Assembly: GCF_030273445.1 (NCBI RefSeq) | Contig: NZ_CP120678.1 | Coordinates: forward strand, 2,581,501-2,645,500 | Length of the DNA stretch: 64,000 bases | Origin: Selenobaculum gibii | GTDB lineage: Bacteria > Bacillota > Negativicutes > ICN-92133 | Direction: 5' to 3' | Part shown: piece by piece, positions 12,553 to 64,000 of the stretch | How the letters are laid out: every line of letters begins with the position of its first letter | How positions within the stretch are numbered: position 1 is the first letter of the stretch | Notes under the pieces: generated by a model | What the model was told of the DNA's origin: nothing | The model's input: the letters and a program-made list of their open reading frames with translations, nothing else | The model's database searches: none | Program-made: the position numbers and the translations under genes

Positions 12553-12655
12553 ACAAAAAACCGCCTGAGCATCATTCTCTTTGCCCAGACGGTCGGCTTT
12601 CATTGCTATGCAGTTCACGTGGTCACTTCCACTATATCCGTCAGTTCTGCACGGC
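12553..12655 (-). ncRNA. ZMP/ZTP (pfl) riboswitch with intrinsic terminator
   Basis: The minus-strand RNA has the pfl architecture: P1 GUGCAG/CUGCAU (12647-12652 with 12608-12613), ACUGACGG, the hairpin GUGG-AAGUGA-CCAC, then GCCGACCGUCUGGGCA. CCGU can pair with ACGG to make the pseudoknot. The same CCGUCUGGGC also pairs with GCUCAGGCGG (12561-12570) followed by UUUUUU, so ligand-stabilised pseudoknot and terminator are mutually exclusive, as in known transcriptional ON switches. The only gene downstream is the OFA transporter, starting 60 bases later. Confidence 0.85.
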
Positions 12656-12660
12656 ATATT

Positions 12661-13443: not shown

Positions 13444-13519
13444 TGGTGGGCGATAACAGGATCGAACTGCTGACATCCTGCTTGTAAGGCAGGCGCTCTC
13501 CCAGCTGAGCTAATCGCCC
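13444..13519 (-). tRNA. tRNA-Val (TAC), distal copy
   Basis: 76 bases with encoded CCA; stem CCTGC/GCAGG closes the loop CTTACAA. Last gene of the eight-tRNA unit and identical to the copy at 13871-13946. Confidence 0.95.
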
Positions 13520-13528
13520 ATGGAAAAA

Positions 13529-13603
13529 TGGTGACCCGTACGAGATTCGAACTCGTGAAGCCGCCGTGAAAGGGCGGTGTCTTAACCGCTTGACCAACGG
13601 GCC
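13529..13603 (-). tRNA. tRNA-Glu (TTC), distal copy
   Basis: 75 bases with encoded CCA; loop CTTTCAC between CCGCC and GGCGG. Identical to 13956-14030. Confidence 0.95.
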
Positions 13604-13607
13604 ACAA

Positions 13608-13683
13608 TGGTGATCCACCCGCGACTCGAACGCGGGACACCCTGATTAAAAGTCAGGTGCTCTACCGACTGAGCTAGTGGATC
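13608..13683 (-). tRNA. tRNA-Lys (TTT), distal copy
   Basis: 76 bases with encoded CCA; acceptor GATCCAC/GTGGATC, loop CTTTTAA. Identical to 14035-14110. Confidence 0.95.
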
Positions 13684-13695
13684 AAAAAATTTAAA

Positions 13696-13771
<76 letters not shown>

Positions 13772-13775
13772 AAAA

Positions 13776-13852
13776 TGGCGACCCGAAGGGGACTTGAACC
13801 CCTGACCTCCGCCGTGACAGGGCGGCATTCTAACCAACTAAACTACCGGGCC
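13776..13852 (-). tRNA. tRNA-Asp (GTC)
   Basis: 77 bases with encoded CCA; loop CTGTCAC between CCGCC and GGCGG. Confidence 0.95.
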
Positions 13853-13870
13853 AAAAAACAAAAAGGTGAG

Positions 13871-13946
13871 TGGTGGGCGATAACAGGATCGAACTGCTGA
13901 CATCCTGCTTGTAAGGCAGGCGCTCTCCCAGCTGAGCTAATCGCCC
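13871..13946 (-). tRNA. tRNA-Val (TAC), proximal copy
   Basis: Same structure and sequence as 13444-13519. Confidence 0.95.
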
Positions 13947-13955
13947 ATATGAAAT

Positions 13956-14030
13956 TGGTGACCCGTACGAGATTCGAACTCGTGAAGCCGCCGTGAAAGG
14001 GCGGTGTCTTAACCGCTTGACCAACGGGCC
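13956..14030 (-). tRNA. tRNA-Glu (TTC), proximal copy
   Basis: Same structure and sequence as 13529-13603. Confidence 0.95.
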
Positions 14031-14034
14031 ACAA

Positions 14035-14110
14035 TGGTGATCCACCCGCGACTCGAACGCGGGACACCCTGATTAAAAGTCAGGTGCTCTACCGACTGAG
14101 CTAGTGGATC
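14035..14110 (-). tRNA. tRNA-Lys (TTT), proximal copy, first gene of the unit
   Basis: Same structure and sequence as 13608-13683. It is the first tRNA after the promoter at 14130-14158. Confidence 0.95.
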
Positions 14111-53560: not shown

Positions 53561-54736
53561 TTAAGGATTTACTTTTTCTTTAAATGTTTGTTTTCCATCT
53601 TTAAATTCAATAACTACAGCACTCTTTACTGCATCATGCGTTTCATTTAATGTAATTATTCCAGAAACCGCTTGATATTCTTTTGTTTTTGCCAATTCAT
53701 CTTTAATTTTTACGGTATCTTCACTACCAACACGTTTAATCGCTTCAATAATCATCATCGTTGCATCATAAGATAATGCAGCAAAGGAATCTGGAACTTG
53801 TCCATATTCAGCTTTATAAGAATCAACAAAAGTTCTAATTGCTGGGCTGTTATCCTCTGGAGAGTAATGACTTGCAAAGTATGTATTATTTAGCGCCCCA
53901 TTTCCTGCAATTTCAGGTAACTTTGCACTATCCCAGCCATCACCACCAAGAACGGCACAATTAATACCAAGTTCACGCGCTTGTTTAATAATCATCCCAA
54001 CTTCCTGATAATATCCAGGTACAAATAAAATATCCGGATTTGCAGCTTTAATTTTTGTTAAAGTTGCCTTAAAGTCTGTATCTTTTGCGAGATATGCTTC
54101 TTTAGAAACAATTTTACCGCCATTTTTTATAAAAGTTTCTTCGAAAAATTGTCCTAACCCTTTTGCATAATCACTAGAGTTATCAATATATAATGCAGCG
54201 TTTTTACCATTTAGAGATTTAGCCGCAAAATTTGCCATTACAGAACCTTGGAACGGATCAATAAACGCCGCTCTAAATAAATAGTCACGAGTCTTACCCG
54301 TTTCAGGATCCACTGTTACTTTTGGATTGGATGCAGTAGGGCTGATTGCCAATACTTTACCGTCCATATTTACTTGTGCACCTGCAATTACACTAGAAGA
54401 TGCAATTGGAGCAATTACAGCCAATACTCTATCTTGTGTAATTAATTTTTGCATTGCATTTGCTGCCTCTGCCGCTTCTGATTTATTATCCGCTACAACT
54501 AAACTAATTTGTTTGCCAAGCACGCCACCTTTTGCATTGACTTCTTTAATTGCCAATTTGGCGCCATTTGTTGCCGACTGACCAAACGTAGCATTCGTTC
54601 CTGTCATTTCTAAGTTCGCACCAATCTTAATTGTATCGCTGTTTGATGCCCCACCGCCACAACCTGCAACTGCCAAAGCAAGTACACTTGCTGTTAAAGC
54701 TGCACAAACTGCTTTTTTCACTTTTCCAAAAAACAT
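53561..54736 (-). CDS. Branched-chain amino acid ABC substrate-binding lipoprotein, copy 1
   Basis: The 391-residue LivJ/LivK-type protein has a lipoprotein signal (ALTASVLALAVAGCGGG), then IKIGANLEMTGTNATFGQSATNGAKLAIKEVNAKGGVLGK, and periplasmic-binding type I fold repeats to YDATMMIIEAIKRVGS. It delivers Leu/Ile/Val or related amino acids to LivHM. It has its own promoter (54813-54841) and a terminator at 53511-53554, so it is not in one transcript with livH. It is a paralogue of 55020-56201. Confidence 0.93.
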   Translation of the reverse strand: MFFGKVKKAVCAALTASVLALAVAGCGGGASNSDTIKIGANLEMTGTNATFGQSATNGAKLAIKEVNAKGGVLGKQISLVVADNKSEAAEAANAMQKLITQDRVLAVIAPIASSSVIAGAQVNMDGKVLAISPTASNPKVTVDPETGKTRDYLFRAAFIDPFQGSVMANFAAKSLNGKNAALYIDNSSDYAKGLGQFFEETFIKNGGKIVSKEAYLAKDTDFKATLTKIKAANPDILFVPGYYQEVGMIIKQARELGINCAVLGGDGWDSAKLPEIAGNGALNNTYFASHYSPEDNSPAIRTFVDSYKAEYGQVPDSFAALSYDATMMIIEAIKRVGSEDTVKIKDELAKTKEYQAVSGIITLNETHDAVKSAVVIEFKDGKQTFKEKVNP

Positions 54737-54812
54737 GAAACTCCTCCTCTTTGTCGCCTACAAAATACGCCTAGCCTGTACAAATGTATCGTGTGGCGTT
54801 TCAATTGTTTTA

Positions 54813-54841
54813 ATTGTAGAAGTCTAAAGATAAATTGTCAA
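54813..54841 (-). promoter_or_regulatory. Promoter of binding-protein copy 1
   Basis: Minus strand: TTGACA (54836-54841), 17-base spacer, TACAAT (54813-54818). Confidence 0.85.
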
Positions 54842-54973
54842 TACTTCTATTAACGCACAAACGCACCATTTGTCCCCTTGCAGTGGACGTTTCATAATCT
54901 AATTTACGAAATTCCTAGAAAACAGTCCACTCTGTAAACTTAAAAAAATTATTAATTTACTTTTTATAGAGAA

Positions 54974-55004
54974 AAAAAGTGGCAGAAAAATTCTGCCACT
55001 TTGC
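54974..55004 (-). terminator. Terminator after binding-protein copy 2
   Basis: AAAGTGGCAGAA pairs with TTCTGCCACTTT around 3-4 bases, with TTTTTTT on the minus strand. Confidence 0.92.
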
Positions 55005-55019
55005 ATTTAATCCAATCAA

Positions 55020-56201
55020 TTATTTGTTTGGATTAATCTTTTCTTTAAATACTTTTTCACCATTTTTCATTTCAAGAACAACCGCACTCTTTATTGGATC
55101 ATGCGTTGCACTCATTGTAATAATCCCTGTACCAACCTGTAAATCTTTTGTTTCTTCTAAAGCTACACGAATTTTTTCCGGATCATCGCTGCCGGCACGT
55201 TTAATTGCATCAATTAACATCATGCCGCCATCGTAGCCAAGAGCGGCGAATACGCTTGGTTCTTGACCATATTCAGCTTTATATGCTTCAATAAAGCTTT
55301 TTACGCTTGCATCATTATCCTGCACGGAGTAATGAGAGCTGAAATATGTATTGTTTAGTGGGTCAGCACCAGCAATTTCAGTAAGTTTGGAATCATCCCA
55401 ACCATCTGTACCAATTAATGGAATGTTAATACCAAGTTCACGTGCTTGCTTAACGATCTTGCCAACTTCTTCATAATAAGCTGGGATAAAAATAACATCA
55501 GGATTTCCTGCTTTTAATTTCGTTAATGTAGATTTAAAGTCTTGATCTTTTTGTAAGAAAGCTTCTTGTGCTACAACTTTGCCACCTTGCGCTTCGAAAA
55601 TCTTTGTAAATACTTCCGCCAAACTCTTAGAATAGTCAGAACTTGCATCTACATAGATTGCCGCCGTTTTTGCATTTAATGTTTTCGTCGCGAAGTTCGC
55701 CATTACTTCCCCTTGTAACGGATCAATAAAGCAACTGCGGAAAGCATAAGGTTTTACTTTCCCATTTTCAACTGTAATTTTAGGATTTGTCCCCATTGGT
55801 GCAATTAATGGAATTTTATTATCTTCCGCAATTTGCAAAGTCGCCAATACATTTGAAGTTGTAGCTGGCCCAACAACTACTTTTACTTTATCATTAGAAA
55901 TCAATTTTGTTGTTGCATTTGCTGCTTCAGAAGCTTCTGATTTATTATCCGCAACTACAAGATTAATTTGTTTACCAAGTACACCACCCTTTTCATTGGC
56001 TTGCTTAATTGCTAGCTTAAGCCCATTAAGACCTTGCGAACCATAGTTAGCAACTCCACCTGTCAATTCAAAGTTTGCTCCAATTTTAATTTCACTGCTA
56101 TTGGATGCTTGATTACCACCACATCCAGTAAATATTGCGCCCATCATCGTTACACCTAAAGCTAAACTTGTGAGTGCCATGAGCTTTTTTCCCAATTTCA
56201 T
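55020..56201 (-). CDS. Branched-chain amino acid ABC substrate-binding lipoprotein, copy 2
   Basis: The 393-residue protein has a lipobox (MMGAIFTGCGGN) and closely follows copy 1: IKIGANFELTGGVANYGSQG, LAIKQANEKGGVLGKQINLVVADNKSEASEAAN, VMANFATKTLNAKTAAIYVD. The two genes look like a tandem duplication with diverged ligand pockets (TGTNATFG versus TGGVANYG at the ligand loop). It has its own promoter at 56272-56301 and terminator. Confidence 0.93.
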   Translation of the reverse strand: MKLGKKLMALTSLALGVTMMGAIFTGCGGNQASNSSEIKIGANFELTGGVANYGSQGLNGLKLAIKQANEKGGVLGKQINLVVADNKSEASEAANATTKLISNDKVKVVVGPATTSNVLATLQIAEDNKIPLIAPMGTNPKITVENGKVKPYAFRSCFIDPLQGEVMANFATKTLNAKTAAIYVDASSDYSKSLAEVFTKIFEAQGGKVVAQEAFLQKDQDFKSTLTKLKAGNPDVIFIPAYYEEVGKIVKQARELGINIPLIGTDGWDDSKLTEIAGADPLNNTYFSSHYSVQDNDASVKSFIEAYKAEYGQEPSVFAALGYDGGMMLIDAIKRAGSDDPEKIRVALEETKDLQVGTGIITMSATHDPIKSAVVLEMKNGEKVFKEKINPNK

Positions 56202-58466: not shown

Positions 58467-58476
58467 TAGCCAAAAT

Positions 58477-58517
58477 AAGCCGATAAAAATCAATGATTTT
58501 TATCGGCTTATTTTTTA
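58477..58517. terminator. Bidirectional terminator
   Basis: AAGCCGATAAAAATCA pairs with TGATTTTTATCGGCTT around one or two bases; ATTTTTTAT follows on the plus side and ATTTTGG on the minus side. Confidence 0.92.
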
Positions 58518-59042
58518 TTTCTGGGCTAAAAAATTCATCCGTTTCTTTATTTTTAAAGCAAACTCATGCGCTTCCAGTAAATTGGTTGCATCGGGATGAA
58601 CAGCAGCCTTCTGCCAGCGTTTCTGCGATTCGATGCTCGGTGCATGTGGATGATTGGCTGGTAATTTTGCTAAGCGGTCTAATAAGTTAGGATCAATCTT
58701 TCCCTGACTGGAAAAAGCCCCAACGATTTTGCAATTTGAGCCAAGGTATCGCGCAGCATTTGCTAAAGAAATCATCGCATGTTCTCCCATTGCCTCTGCC
58801 CCTAATGTTTGAAATAATACAATGGATTTCCCTTGTAGTTTAGCCAAAAATTCTCGTGCTTTTTTATTTGGCATTCCATATTCAACGCTATAGCCAAGAA
58901 AAATTACATCATAAATTTTCCACTCAATTTCATCATCAATACTCTTTAAATCCCCTAAATCGGCAATTGCAGAGTACATACTTTCTGCAATCTGCTTTGT
59001 ATTTCCCGTTTTACTAGAGTAAACAATCAAATATTTGTTCAT
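58515..59042 (-). CDS. Flavodoxin-family protein
   Basis: The 175-residue protein has the FMN loop YLIVYSSKTGNTKQIAESMY, DVIFLGYSVEYGMPNKKAREFL and VLFQTLGAEAMGEHA. A C-terminal extension of about 50 residues (PNLLDRLAKLPANHPHAPSIES onward) is typical of flavodoxins that serve a dedicated partner. It is the last gene of the cobalamin-riboswitch operon, 14 bases after the HutW-like gene, and is the likely electron donor for it. Flavodoxin partners are known for anaerobic heme-opening radical-SAM enzymes. Confidence 0.85.
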   Translation of the reverse strand: MNKYLIVYSSKTGNTKQIAESMYSAIADLGDLKSIDDEIEWKIYDVIFLGYSVEYGMPNKKAREFLAKLQGKSIVLFQTLGAEAMGEHAMISLANAARYLGSNCKIVGAFSSQGKIDPNLLDRLAKLPANHPHAPSIESQKRWQKAAVHPDATNLLEAHEFALKIKKRMNFLAQK

Positions 59043-59056
59043 CTCACGACTCCACC

Positions 59057-60478
59057 TTATCGCAAATTCATCATTTCTGACATCATTGACATCTGCTTAT
59101 TTTGGTTGTTTTCCGCTCCATAAATTGCATATTGCAAACCACATAAAATAGATCTTGCGATCCATCTCATCCAATATTTTCCGTGGGTTGTCAACATGAT
59201 ATCATTATTTTTACTTATACAGAGTCCTTGATTTTCCCATAATTTCATATAAGGTAAAAGTCCAGGCTTTAGTTCAATCGCATAACTTTTCTCTAGACCA
59301 TCTAGATCTAAATAGCCACAGTCTAATTGTCCGCTTATCTTTGCAAATAGCGAAGAAAAGTGATCGCGTTGAAATACCATCGCAAAAGGCTTTTCCTGCT
59401 TCTCTACCTTTTTCTTGTATGCATTTAAATCGCGTACTTGAATATATTCCAACTCTCCAATACTGCCTCCGGCTCCAGCACCAAAAGCAAAAATATCACT
59501 GCCATTTTTGGCAAGTTTATTATAAAGGCTCTTATCTTTTTCGCCGCATGTAAAATGGCAACAACTCAGCTGCTGCCAAGCATTTTCCTTCAAATAGCCT
59601 ACTCCTCGTTCATATAATTCCATTCGCTCATCTGCCGCTGGGCACGGTGGATATGCTCCAGTTTTAAGCTTTTCTTCCAGTATGGAATGAGGAAAACGTT
59701 GCAATTTATATAAATCTACCCCTGTAACATTGCATTGCAGTAAGAATTCCAAATCCTTTTGCCAATCTTCCATAGTTTGTCCCGGCAATCCATAGATAAG
59801 ATCAACGATGACATTTACCCCTGTTTGGGCAAGCGATTTTAGCTTTTCTACAATAACTTTTTGTTCAGCCGACCGTCCTAATTTACGTCGTAAATCCGTA
59901 GAAAACGTTTGAACGCCAAAGCTAAAACGATTTACACCATACTTTAAACAAATCGCTAATTTAGCCTCATTAAAGTCAGTGATATTACTCTCAAATGTAA
60001 ATTCACAGCCAGATTCCAGTAAAAAAACTTTTCTTATTTTACTTAATAACCGTTCTAACTGATCTTCATTTAATGCACTAGGGCTACCTCCACCGATAAA
60101 AACTGCTGAAATCATCTGACTTTGATAGTACTCAAAATCTTCTATTATTGATAACTCTTGACATAGCAAATCAACATATTCCTCTTGCATTACTAAATCA
60201 CTTGGATAGCCACAAAAATTACAGTAACTACAGCGTTGCTTACAAAATGGGATATGTATATATACCGCGCTTTTATTTTTTTTTGCTACCATCGTCGCCT
60301 GTTCACGAAAGCGAATTTGCTGTTTAGGCGGCATAATTGGTAGCAGATGACGCGGCGAGTATTGAAGTGTGCAATCATTAAATAACTCACTCATCTTTCG
60401 TGTTGCTTTTAGCCCGAATAATTCTTTATGATTTTCCAGTTGCATAAACTCAGCTAATCCATTCGTCAAATTCATCAT
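59057..60478 (-). CDS. HutW/ChuW-like radical-SAM protein (HemN superfamily)
   Basis: The 473-residue protein (ATG 60478 after GGGGGAAAGAG; an alternative ATG is at 60502) has the radical-SAM motif HIPFCKQRCSYCNFCGY, GGGSPSALNEDQLERLL, FESNITDF, GVNRFSFGVQTFSTDLRRKLGR and DLIYGLPGQTMEDWQ, the HemN layout. The N-terminal SPRHLLPIMPP segment and the C-terminal half place it with HutW/ChuW, anaerobic heme-degrading enzymes, rather than coproporphyrinogen dehydrogenase. Here it is controlled by a cobalamin riboswitch with a TonB receptor and binding protein, so a corrinoid or another tetrapyrrole may be the substrate; that is inference. Confidence 0.82.
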   Translation of the reverse strand: MMNLTNGLAEFMQLENHKELFGLKATRKMSELFNDCTLQYSPRHLLPIMPPKQQIRFREQATMVAKKNKSAVYIHIPFCKQRCSYCNFCGYPSDLVMQEEYVDLLCQELSIIEDFEYYQSQMISAVFIGGGSPSALNEDQLERLLSKIRKVFLLESGCEFTFESNITDFNEAKLAICLKYGVNRFSFGVQTFSTDLRRKLGRSAEQKVIVEKLKSLAQTGVNVIVDLIYGLPGQTMEDWQKDLEFLLQCNVTGVDLYKLQRFPHSILEEKLKTGAYPPCPAADERMELYERGVGYLKENAWQQLSCCHFTCGEKDKSLYNKLAKNGSDIFAFGAGAGGSIGELEYIQVRDLNAYKKKVEKQEKPFAMVFQRDHFSSLFAKISGQLDCGYLDLDGLEKSYAIELKPGLLPYMKLWENQGLCISKNNDIMLTTHGKYWMRWIARSILCGLQYAIYGAENNQNKQMSMMSEMMNLR

Positions 60479-60507
60479 GATATCTCTTTCCCCCAAATCC
60501 ATCTTTC

Positions 60508-61488
60508 TTATCGCGATTCATTTTTCGGATATAATTGTTCTACCATATAGCGGACTGCTTCTGGATATCGCAACCCGGGATTGAGTAAAAATAAGTCCTC
60601 TGGTAAAAAGAAAACTTGTTTATTTTTTACTGCCCGCAACTCTAACCATGCCGGATTATTTTCCATTTCTGACTTAATCCGTTCAAGTGCGCCTCCGTTA
60701 GCTCCCATTGAAGTAATAAATAATACTTCAGGATCTTTTTCTACGAGTGCTTCCATGCTATATACAATTTTATCTGGGGATGCCATACCATTCATCTTTG
60801 CGATTGGCATATCCCCAGACTTAATTGCCAAATCTAAATGAAGTAATGCAGCCACACTTCCGGCGATGCTATCCTCCGTTTCTACGGAAATATCATTCAT
60901 TGTCGTATGTAAAATCACTGTTTTCTTGCTAACTAATGGAACATTTGCTATAGCATCTTGGACACCGTTATCTAATTTTTTTGCCAAGTCTTGCCCCAAA
61001 TCTGCATGACCGGAAACCAGCCCTAATAATTCACAATTTCGTTTTACGTCTTGATAAGTTTTCAGATTAAGTACAATCACCGGAATATGGTTTGCCTCCA
61101 ATATTGGTAGCAAATTCTCATGCATTCCTTTATAAGCAATGACTAAATCAGGCTGTAAGCTCACTACAGCTTCACTGTTAATTCGATAAACAAAACCAAC
61201 TTCTGCACTATCTTTATATCGCTTGGGAATCTGAGCTATCTGTGAGGTTGCCCGTCCGATAACTTTCCCCTGTACCTGATCCAAAATTTCTAGAAAGGAT
61301 GGTGATAACACCACAATTCGTTCCGGTGTATTTGCCAATAACACTTCGCGATGATTATCATCGATGATTGTCAAGTTCTGGCTATGATTTTCCCCTAAAG
61401 TCAAAGATTCTTTATTCCCACATCCAGAAAACAATACACTAGCCGCAATAAATAAAATTGCACTAACCACTATTAATCCTTTATTCAT
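60508..61488 (-). CDS. Periplasmic binding lipoprotein, BtuF/FepB-like (helical backbone type)
   Basis: The 326-residue lipoprotein starts at ATG 61488 (MNKGLIVVSAILF with lipobox LFSGC); the longer upstream frame overlaps the receptor gene and is rejected. The fold is that of corrinoid/heme/siderophore binders: RIVVLSPSFLEILDQV, QPDLVIAYKGMHENLLPIL, a long linker helix, and SMEALVEKDPEVLFITSM. Downstream ABC permease and ATPase genes are not in the window. Riboswitch control favours corrinoid; the HutW-like neighbour would favour heme. Confidence 0.85.
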   Translation of the reverse strand: MNKGLIVVSAILFIAASVLFSGCGNKESLTLGENHSQNLTIIDDNHREVLLANTPERIVVLSPSFLEILDQVQGKVIGRATSQIAQIPKRYKDSAEVGFVYRINSEAVVSLQPDLVIAYKGMHENLLPILEANHIPVIVLNLKTYQDVKRNCELLGLVSGHADLGQDLAKKLDNGVQDAIANVPLVSKKTVILHTTMNDISVETEDSIAGSVAALLHLDLAIKSGDMPIAKMNGMASPDKIVYSMEALVEKDPEVLFITSMGANGGALERIKSEMENNPAWLELRAVKNKQVFFLPEDLFLLNPGLRYPEAVRYMVEQLYPKNESR

Positions 61489-61516
61489 ACAACACTCACT
61501 TTCAGTCCTAACCAAA

Positions 61517-63613
61517 CTAGAATTTGCAGTCGATTCCAACACGATACATTCTTCCATATACATCTTTATTATAATCATGATAATTGCCGAGATTATCTAT
61601 GCCTAAGTATAGCCTTGCCCTCGCATCTAAATCTTTTTGTGCTAAGAAATTAACTACTGTAAATGTGCTATTTTCCATTTCTTTATCCCCCGTTGTAATA
61701 TTGCCATCTTTGCTCGCCCAATAATCAATATTACTTACTACATCCAAGTTAAACTGCCAGTTCGTATCCTTCGGATGATAAAACAATCCTAAATTAAGCT
61801 GATGTCTAGGACGATCTTCTAGTCTTTGACTGCTTCCTTGATCTTTTGCATCTAAATAAACATAGCCAAAGTTCAAATCTACTTCATCATTCAATTGATG
61901 CTGGATTGAAGCTTCTATTCCTTGCATTCTCGCTTCGGGAATGTTTTTATACGTCATTAATTTGTCTTTTGTCGGTATTATACTGGAAACTAAGTTTCCA
62001 GCACTATCCACATATTTACCAGTCCAAGTAGATGTAATTAATTCTTTAACATCATTTCTAAATAAACCAAAATGTCCTGTTGTCTTATCATTCCAATCTT
62101 TTTCTAATGCTAATTCATAGTTCCATGATTTTTCCGGCTTAATATTAGGATTTCCCTGGAAATACTGACCTGGCCCGCCCATCGCGCTGCCTGCAAACAT
62201 TTCCCAAGCATGATAAAGTTCATTAATCGTCGGTGTCTTATAACCTTGTCCCACAACAACCTTTAACCTAGTATCATCAGCAATGTGATAAGTAGATGCT
62301 AAATTTCCTGTCCAAGCAGAGTCAAATAAATTACTATGATCAAATCGTATGGATGGTATAACTAGCCATTGGTCATTTGGACGAATTTCATCCTGAAAAT
62401 ACAAGGAAACATAGTCAATAGATGCTTCATCACTCGATTTTTTACTATTTAGATCGGTTTTTATTCTCGTTCCTTCCGATTTATCTTGTCTCCATTCAAA
62501 ACCAACTGTAGCCAGATGCTTATCGCCCAGTTGCCAACTGTCTTTCCCTTCAAGGACATTAATTGTACGATTCACCCAATCGAAACTATTTAATGTATAA
62601 GGGATAGTAACAATATTATTGCGTCGTGTCTGTTTATAAATAAAATATTCCTTTTCATATTTCGACTGATATGCTCGAACCGACCAATTTTGTTTATCAT
62701 CTTCACCTTCATAGTTCAGCGATAAATTCGTACGTTTATTTTCATTTTTATTAATTTTATCTGATTTTGGCATCATTGGATGATAGGATTGCCCCGCTTC
62801 TGAACGCTGTGTGTCTTCGTTCAGTCGTCCGAAATCAAAACTTAAGCGATTCCCATTTTCAGCCGTATAGGTCATGCCAAAATCAATATTTTGCTCTTTG
62901 CCAAAATAATTATTACTTGTTCCTTCATTATCTACATAGAATGGTTTACTATCATTATAACTTCCCGATATCTTCCAACTCATATTTCCTTTCTCATTAA
63001 TATCTTGATAAAAAATACTAGTTGTTGGACCTGCACTGTCACCATGTTCATAAAGTGAATAATCATAATTAATTGAACCTTGCTTTTTCATTGGCTGTCG
63101 CATGATAATATTGACAACGCCGCCAATTGCATCGCTTCCGTACAACGATCCGGCAGAACCGCGAATAATTTCAACACGTTCCACATTATCCATATTGATT
63201 CGATCTATTTCATGCGCATTGGCTGAGTTATACGAAAGTTCTCCGCTCATCCGTTTGCCATCAACCATAATTAAAACATGTCTTGATTCTGAGCCACGAA
63301 TTCTCACTTGTGATCTTCCCTGAAAATCCTTCCACAAGGTCACCCCTAGCGCATTTTGCAAAACATCCCGTAACGTTCTAGATTGTCGCTTTTCAATATC
63401 TTGACGTATGATTACTTGTACTGTGGTAGGAACTTCTTTTACTGTCTGATCAGTCCTTGTCGCAGTTACAACAACACCATCTAGATAAAATTCATCCAAT
63501 ACTTCTTCATTTGCCCAAGCAATCTCTGTACCGATTGATAATTGCGTGCCCAATATCATTCCACAAACAATCGCCATCCCGATTGCTTTCTTTTTTTGGC
63601 TATAATGTTTCAT
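61517..63613 (-). CDS. TonB-dependent outer-membrane receptor
   Basis: The 698-residue protein has a signal peptide (ending AWA-NEEVL), a TonB-box region FYLDGVVVTATRTDQTVKEVP, the plug domain (RGSESRHVLIMVDGKRMSG, NVERVEIIRGSAGSLYGSDAIGGVVNI), and a 22-strand barrel ending in RVGIDCKF with a terminal Phe. It imports a large ligand across the outer membrane with TonB energy. The size and cobalamin-riboswitch control point to a BtuB-type corrinoid receptor, though heme or another tetrapyrrole is not excluded. AGGAGG lies about 11 bases before the ATG. Confidence 0.92.
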   Translation of the reverse strand: MKHYSQKKKAIGMAIVCGMILGTQLSIGTEIAWANEEVLDEFYLDGVVVTATRTDQTVKEVPTTVQVIIRQDIEKRQSRTLRDVLQNALGVTLWKDFQGRSQVRIRGSESRHVLIMVDGKRMSGELSYNSANAHEIDRINMDNVERVEIIRGSAGSLYGSDAIGGVVNIIMRQPMKKQGSINYDYSLYEHGDSAGPTTSIFYQDINEKGNMSWKISGSYNDSKPFYVDNEGTSNNYFGKEQNIDFGMTYTAENGNRLSFDFGRLNEDTQRSEAGQSYHPMMPKSDKINKNENKRTNLSLNYEGEDDKQNWSVRAYQSKYEKEYFIYKQTRRNNIVTIPYTLNSFDWVNRTINVLEGKDSWQLGDKHLATVGFEWRQDKSEGTRIKTDLNSKKSSDEASIDYVSLYFQDEIRPNDQWLVIPSIRFDHSNLFDSAWTGNLASTYHIADDTRLKVVVGQGYKTPTINELYHAWEMFAGSAMGGPGQYFQGNPNIKPEKSWNYELALEKDWNDKTTGHFGLFRNDVKELITSTWTGKYVDSAGNLVSSIIPTKDKLMTYKNIPEARMQGIEASIQHQLNDEVDLNFGYVYLDAKDQGSSQRLEDRPRHQLNLGLFYHPKDTNWQFNLDVVSNIDYWASKDGNITTGDKEMENSTFTVVNFLAQKDLDARARLYLGIDNLGNYHDYNKDVYGRMYRVGIDCKF

Positions 63614-63667
63614 CCCCGATTTATCCTCCTAAAAATTTCTTAACTACACAATCCATCTTACTAAAAA

Positions 63668-63695
63668 AAATCTGCCTCTTCGAAAAGGCAGATTT
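63668..63695 (-). terminator. Terminator in the receptor leader, proximal
   Basis: AAATCTGCCT pairs with AGGCAGATTT around TTTTCGAA, followed on the minus strand by TTTTTTTAG. It lies between the riboswitch and the receptor gene. Confidence 0.88.
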
Positions 63696-63722
63696 CAATT
63701 ATCAGCAAATAAAAACATAAAA

Positions 63723-63741
63723 ACCCAGCACGAAGCTGGGT
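63723..63741 (-). terminator. Terminator in the receptor leader, distal
   Basis: ACCCAGC pairs with GCTGGGT around 5 bases, followed on the minus strand by TTTTATGTTTTTA. Two terminators thus follow one aptamer. Confidence 0.82.
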
Positions 63742-63844
63742 AAAATAGCAATATAAATGCTGTTATTTTATCCCCTCCCTATCACTCGTAGGTTGTATGG
63801 ACTGAATGGATGGTCACATTGACTTTGAATTGTTCTATCCAACA

Positions 63845-64000
63845 GTTAACGCAGCATCTAATCTCCATATTCGGTGATTGATAAACAGGCAGTTCTCCTG
63901 GCTTTAAATCATCGCTCATCCAAACCTTCCCAAAGTTTTCACCCCAGTGGCATATCTTGGACTAACTCCTTATTACAGTGGCGGGACCGCGCCGGCATTG
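63845..64000 (-). ncRNA. Cobalamin (AdoCbl-type) riboswitch, 5' part beyond the window
   Basis: The minus strand reads AATGCCGGCGCGGTCCCGCC, ACTGTAAT, GAGT, TATGCCACTGG, GGGAAGGT, GGATGA and then the B12 box AGCCAGGAGAACTGCCTG (63886-63903), all core elements of the cobalamin aptamer in order. P1 and part of the 5' side lie outside the window. The downstream operon is receptor, binding protein, HutW-like enzyme and flavodoxin. Confidence 0.95.

What the first reader, a model, noticed from the sequence alone, without database searches (positions are those of the whole stretch)
58515..64000. Cobalamin-riboswitch operon pairing corrinoid-type uptake with a HutW-like radical-SAM enzyme and flavodoxin
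A clear cobalamin riboswitch heads TonB receptor, binding lipoprotein, a HemN-superfamily protein of HutW/ChuW type, and a flavodoxin, with gaps of 14-30 bases. HutW/ChuW enzymes are known for anaerobic heme ring opening and use reduced flavoprotein. Placing that pair under B12 control suggests an unrecognised anaerobic route acting on corrinoids (remodelling, decyanation or breakdown), or a heme pathway that responds to B12. It could equally be that this HutW homologue itself needs cobalamin.
Basis: partly seen in the sequence, partly recalled or inferred. Interest (0 to 1): 0.85.

Follow-up and report, generated by a model that had tools for sequence, protein, structure and literature searches.

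The report
B12-controlled twin of heme-breaking operon
This bacterium carries two copies of a gene pair that anaerobes use to break open heme for iron; the copy here belongs to a separate, changed lineage, sits behind a vitamin B12 switch next to corrinoid-type uptake genes, and probably handles a B12-like molecule or its cobalt, an activity we found no description of.

Summary
A full cobalamin riboswitch (RF00174, 107.6 bits; 130 of 182 nt lie in the window) precedes TonB receptor, lipoprotein SBP, HutW-like radical-SAM protein and HmuF/FldH-like flavodoxin.

The same genome has a second, canonical HutW (496 bits against 408 here) in an exbBD-tonB-SBP-ABC-flavodoxin-HutW-receptor operon without a riboswitch. 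The window HutW belongs to a separate clade found in 5 of 381 Negativicutes genomes (100/100 support); their flavodoxins form the matching clade. Catalytic motifs are kept, but residues invariant in 41 canonical HutWs are lost (R166, Q260, R316 in four of five, R318). All four window-type receptors found lie under a cobalamin riboswitch, one beside cbiK. The SBP groups with corrinoid-operon SBPs and lacks the heme-SBP His. A second genome from another order has the same B12-controlled operon. None of 82 canonical HutW loci has a nearby cobalamin riboswitch.

Best reading: a B12-repressed corrinoid/cobalt-tetrapyrrole uptake operon with a recruited, diverged heme ring-opening pair. Substrate and chemistry are inferred. 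The main caveat is that three of the five clade members lack the riboswitch, and one (G180) sits beside a heme-type receptor.

The parts
63871..64000 (-). Cobalamin riboswitch aptamer (RF00174); continues about 52 nt beyond the window edge
   Evidence: 75.8 bits truncated, 107.6 bits in full
63723..63741 (-). Intrinsic terminator-like hairpin with T run between aptamer and receptor start
   Evidence: L057 9242-9224
63667..63696 (-). Second intrinsic terminator-like hairpin (13 pairs, T run)
   Evidence: L057 9197-9168
61517..63613 (-). TonB-dependent receptor, B12-riboswitch-linked type
   Evidence: only 4 of 381 genomes have this type; all four are under RF00174
60508..61578 (-). Substrate-binding lipoprotein (Peripla_BP_2); likely start about 61488 (MNKGLIVVSAILFIAASVLFSGC)
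   Evidence: groups with the SBP of the cbiK-cbiL-btuCD operon; heme-SBP His replaced by Met291
59057..60502 (-). HutW/ChuW-like radical SAM protein of a diverged clade (CX3CX2C at C87, C91, C94)
58515..59042 (-). HmuF/FldH-like flavodoxin with helical-cap region; aligned His of the HPHAP motif
58472..58514 (.). Long palindrome with T run at the operon's 3' end, a likely (bidirectional) terminator

Best explanation
This is a B12-repressed uptake-and-processing operon for a corrinoid or other cobalt tetrapyrrole. When cobalamin is scarce the leader reads through its terminators. The TonB receptor and SBP then bring the molecule in, probably through a BtuCD permease encoded elsewhere. In the cytoplasm the FMN flavodoxin binds and reduces the tetrapyrrole and passes it to a radical-SAM enzyme derived from the heme ring-opener HutW. 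The SAM radical chemistry makes the cargo usable, most likely by opening or altering the ring so that cobalt can be recovered, less likely by reductive removal of an upper ligand. Shown: operon, riboswitch, clade, relatives and residue changes. Inferred: OFF switching, cargo, permease partner and reaction.
For: Riboswitch with two leader terminators. A second, canonical HutW-flavodoxin pair lies in a heme-type operon of the same genome without a riboswitch. The same B12-controlled operon occurs in G053, another order. Window-type receptors occur in 4 of 381 genomes, each under a cobalamin riboswitch, one followed by cbiK. The SBP is 45% identical to the SBP of the cbiK-cbiL-btuCD operon and about 29% to the own heme-operon SBP, and groups apart from heme-operon SBPs. 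The conserved heme-SBP His, aligned with IsdE's PHG His, is Met in all four corrinoid-type SBPs. HutW and flavodoxin form matching 5-member clades. Canonical-invariant R166, Q260 and R318 (all five members) and R316 (four of five) are replaced. None of 82 canonical HutW loci has the riboswitch nearby. In G146 the pair sits with ChlI/ChlD, nitrogenase-like and C-N hydrolase genes whose kinds recur in the B12-riboswitch region of the window genome, with CbiZ and CobN.
Against: Three of the five clade members (G146, G180, G130) have no cobalamin riboswitch on the HutW contig, and the G180 pair sits beside a heme-type receptor (about 50% to another heme-operon receptor). G053, G146, G180 and G130 have no second HutW, so theirs might do the heme job. 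The window HutW still passes the heme-degradation HMM (408 against 400), and the flavodoxin keeps the putative heme-ligand His. Destroying corrinoids for cobalt under B12 shortage is odd economy. Curated receptor and SBP HMMs do not discriminate.
Confidence: 0.52

Rival explanations
1. It is a heme uptake and anaerobic heme degradation operon (HmuTRWF-like) that has come under cobalamin-riboswitch control; the substrate is still heme and the product iron.
For: TIGR04107 passed; nearest solved relative of the flavodoxin is FldH, which binds heme (PMC10404700); the receptor's nearest non-B12 relatives are heme-operon receptors; clade member G180 sits with a heme-type receptor; G053 has no other HutW.
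Against: The window genome already has a canonical heme operon (L058); all four window-type receptors are under cobalamin riboswitches, including ones without HutW; SBP affinity and loss of the heme-ligand His; loss of residues invariant in canonical HutWs.
Confidence: 0.25
2. It is corrinoid salvage without ring opening: flavodoxin and HutW-like protein reduce the imported Co(III) corrinoid and remove its upper ligand (decyanation or dealkylation) before adenosylation.
For: Regulatory logic (expressed when B12 is scarce) fits assimilation; the FMN-over-tetrapyrrole geometry of FldH (PMC10404700) suits metal reduction; CbiZ in the same genome indicates corrinoid remodelling.
Against: The radical-SAM CX3CX2C and GGGxP motifs are intact, which simple reduction would not need; no direct evidence.
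Confidence: 0.17
3. The HutW homologue is itself a cobalamin-dependent enzyme, hence its B12 control.
For: Only the riboswitch.
Against: No B12-binding domain; characterised relatives are class C enzymes that use two SAM molecules (PMC10035031); repression by B12 would switch the enzyme off when its cofactor is present.
Confidence: 0.02

Closest known systems
HmuW-HmuF of Fusobacterium nucleatum hmuTRUVWF (PMC10404700)
   Same: Receptor, SBP, class C radical-SAM protein and capped flavodoxin in one operon; flavodoxin cap region and aligned His present
   Different: Cobalamin riboswitch; no ABC permease in the operon; HutW and flavodoxin of a separate clade with changed conserved residues; corrinoid-type SBP
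ChuW / HutW of E. [quoted passage not shown]
   Same: Radical-SAM family TIGR04107, CX3CX2C motif, HemN-like fold family
   Different: About 30% identity to proteobacterial HutWs; loss of residues invariant in canonical Negativicutes HutWs; paired with a flavodoxin of the FldH kind; B12 control
BtuB/BtuF B12 uptake under cobalamin riboswitch
   Same: Receptor plus binding lipoprotein under RF00174
   Different: Followed by a heme-ring-opener homologue and flavodoxin; receptor and SBP are far below the BtuB and BtuF equivalog cut-offs
HmuS/BtuS CobN-like de-chelatases (PMC12583661, PMC6460266)
   Same: A chelatase or tetrapyrrole enzyme turned to metal harvesting next to TonB uptake
   Different: Unrelated enzyme; CobN-like genes lie elsewhere in this genome, in a region rich in B12-riboswitch operons

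Membership tests
Cobalamin riboswitch RF00174 | Score above the gathering threshold over the whole model | tested here: met
   107.6 bits, model 1-189; conserved B12 box AGCCAGGAGAACTGCC
Cobalamin riboswitch RF00174 | Ligand-dependent control of expression | not testable with these tools
   Two leader terminators suggest an OFF switch; no experiment
HutW/ChuW (TIGR04107 equivalog, anaerobic heme degradation) | HMM score of at least 400 | tested here: met
   408.1, barely over; own canonical copy 495.8; clade mates at 372.6 and 391.3 fall below
HutW/ChuW (TIGR04107 equivalog, anaerobic heme degradation) | CX3CX2C cluster motif | tested here: met
   C87, C91, C94 invariant
HutW/ChuW (TIGR04107 equivalog, anaerobic heme degradation) | Residues invariant in canonical members (R166, Q260, R316, R318, KRxxHxGxxG) | tested here: not met
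   Replaced in the window protein (N173, K266, K322, K324)
HutW/ChuW (TIGR04107 equivalog, anaerobic heme degradation) | Phylogenetic position among canonical heme-operon HutWs | tested here: not met
   Separate clade 100/100
HutW/ChuW (TIGR04107 equivalog, anaerobic heme degradation) | Opens heme to a linear tetrapyrrole | not testable with these tools
   No assay
HmuF/FldH flavodoxin | Flavodoxin fold with cap insertion and axial His | tested here: met
   By sequence only: phmmer to 8g64 through the cap region; His aligned 16 residues before the HP motif
BtuF (NF002894) or IsdE (TIGR03659) SBP | HMM cut-off | tested here: not met
   38.4 of 234; 110.7 of 298.65
BtuB (TIGR01779) receptor | HMM cut-off | tested here: not met
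   182 of 599.7; TonB-hemin 236.3 of 316.85 also not met

The most novel reading that the evidence does not exclude
The clade is an anaerobic radical-SAM enzyme family that opens or rearranges the corrin ring (or another cobalt tetrapyrrole) to release cobalt, a corrin counterpart of anaerobic heme ring opening, controlled by cobalamin.
Probability: 0.28. Interest if true: 0.88.

Novelty: new variant of a known kind. Interest (0 to 1): 0.62.

Why it matters
No enzyme for anaerobic opening of the corrin ring turned up in the open papers searched. Here a heme ring-opener and its dedicated flavodoxin have a diverged twin behind a B12 switch, in the same genome as the canonical pair, which makes a clean side-by-side test of substrate possible. 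It also warns that automatic annotation (TIGR04107) would name this protein as heme degrading.

Tried and rejected
Genome-contig scan with the single protein gave only a Bacilli MAG hit (35%) without uptake genes and a weak Thermodesulfatator hit. Plasmid search gave only canonical HutWs. Viral contigs gave one distant hit. Search of 399 genomes of the wider phylum found no further clade member. Curated receptor and SBP HMMs were tried as a heme/B12 discriminator and fail: own heme-operon proteins also miss the cut-offs. MFE folding of the whole leader is not informative (z -1.58). A first riboswitch alignment had mixed strands (A1) and was replaced by A2. The outgroup HemW distorted the first HutW tree, so the tree was rebuilt without it.

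Full report
Observation. The window's last 5.5 kb on the minus strand hold a receptor, a substrate-binding lipoprotein (SBP), a HutW-like radical-SAM protein and a flavodoxin. RF00174 matches 63871-64000, cut by the window edge, and is complete in the genome with 107.6 bits. The genome has 14 RF00174 hits. Upstream lies a TTGACA-17-TATGAT promoter, and two intrinsic terminators lie between aptamer and start codon, which is the layout of a transcriptional OFF switch. That it is OFF is inferred.

Two HutW copies. The genome encodes a second HutW at G000:C1:517557-518810 (495.8 bits). Its surroundings (L058) are exbB, exbD, tonB, SBP, permease, ATPase, ABC pair, flavodoxin, HutW and receptor, like the hmu operons described with HmuW/HmuF (PMC10404700). 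It has no riboswitch. The heme role of that copy rests on homology.

Clade. In 381 Negativicutes genomes only five have a HutW close to the window's (750-803 bits; next 432). They form one side of a branch with 100/100 support against 41 canonical HutWs. The branches are long, so the order inside the clade is unsure. Their flavodoxins form the matching clade (100/96), so the pair is inherited together. The cluster cysteines, GGGxP and other family residues are kept. Several residues invariant in the 41 canonical proteins are replaced in the window protein: R166 to N173, Q260 to K266, R316 to K322, R318 to K324. R316 is kept in one clade member, G053. R166 lies two residues after the Glu that aligns with HemN E145, and R316/R318 lie just before LYN, which aligns with HemN's LHRNFQG. 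That these are active-site regions of HemN is from memory. Loss of arginines would fit a substrate without free propionates, as in amidated corrinoids; this is inference, and the window protein has lysines at two of the places.

Receptor and SBP. Window-type receptors occur in four genomes of three families (G000, G053, G204, G032; 45-50% identity), and every one is directly downstream of a cobalamin riboswitch. In G032 the next gene is cbiK, then a second riboswitch, cobN and btuCD. The SBP is 45% identical to the SBP of the window genome's cbiK-cbiL-btuCD operon and about 29% to the own heme-operon SBP. SBPs of the heme operons form a separate group (100/99); the corrinoid group itself has moderate support (86/46). 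The His shared by 25 of 30 heme-type SBPs, aligned with IsdE's PHG His, is Met in all four corrinoid-type SBPs. Met can also bind heme iron, so this is not decisive.

Recurrence and survey. G053, of another order, has riboswitch, receptor, SBP, flavodoxin and HutW in one operon. Of 87 HutW loci scanned, with up to about 13 kb upstream, only the window and G053 have the riboswitch; none of 82 canonical loci has it. Some loci are cut by contig ends. In five loci my ORF caller did not recover HutW; there its place is from the protein search. The other three clade members have no riboswitch on the HutW contig.

Wider setting. The window genome has cbiC, J, H, G, F, T, E and D under a riboswitch and a region at 1.60-1.65 Mb with several riboswitches, CbiZ, CobN, ChlI, two nitrogenase-like proteins and a C-N hydrolase. 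In G146 the clade's HutW-flavodoxin pair lies in a cluster of the same gene kinds. This is guilt by association.

Against. G180's pair sits with a heme-type receptor, and four of the five clade genomes have no other HutW. The HMM still calls the protein heme degrading. Breaking corrinoids for cobalt when B12 is short is hard to justify unless the corrinoids are unusable kinds. I therefore hold the module-level claim (corrinoid/cobalt tetrapyrrole acquisition) at about even odds or slightly better, and the ring-opening step at about 0.28.

Novelty. No paper held links HutW or anaerobilin to cobalamin riboswitches (open-access papers only). I rate it a new variant of a known kind.

Noticed in passing
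G000:C1:1596000-1648000 (L060-L062): Region with several cobalamin riboswitches and CbiZ, CobN (two or more copies), ChlI, a nitrogenase-like pair, C-N hydrolase, SBPs and TonB receptors; a similar set lies in G146 (L130, L070). Possibly an undescribed corrinoid or cobalt tetrapyrrole pathway.
   Followed up: partly
G000:C1:1832372-1838902 (L065 373-6903): Riboswitch operon with a CbiK that carries an apparent signal peptide (periplasmic cobaltochelatase), OAD beta subunit, CbiL-like, SBP and BtuCD.
   Followed up: partly
G000:C1:1648000-1657746 (L063 1-9747): Cobalamin riboswitch upstream of what look like methylmalonyl-CoA mutase subunits (named by eye), a B12-dependent enzyme, followed by exbBD-tonB and a receptor; a riboswitch before this enzyme in Veillonella is mentioned in PMC7160235.
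   Followed up: no
window 13444-14110: A 240-nt block of three tRNA genes is duplicated (98% identical, spacing 427).
   Followed up: partly
window 53561-56201: Two tandem branched-chain amino-acid-type binding proteins, 57% identical.
   Followed up: partly
window 12576-12658: ZMP/ZTP riboswitch (59.7 bits).
   Followed up: no
C-terminus of window HutW (residues about 469-481; window 59060-59100): Short Met-rich tail with K469 and M477 invariant in the five-member clade and mostly absent from canonical HutWs.
   Followed up: no
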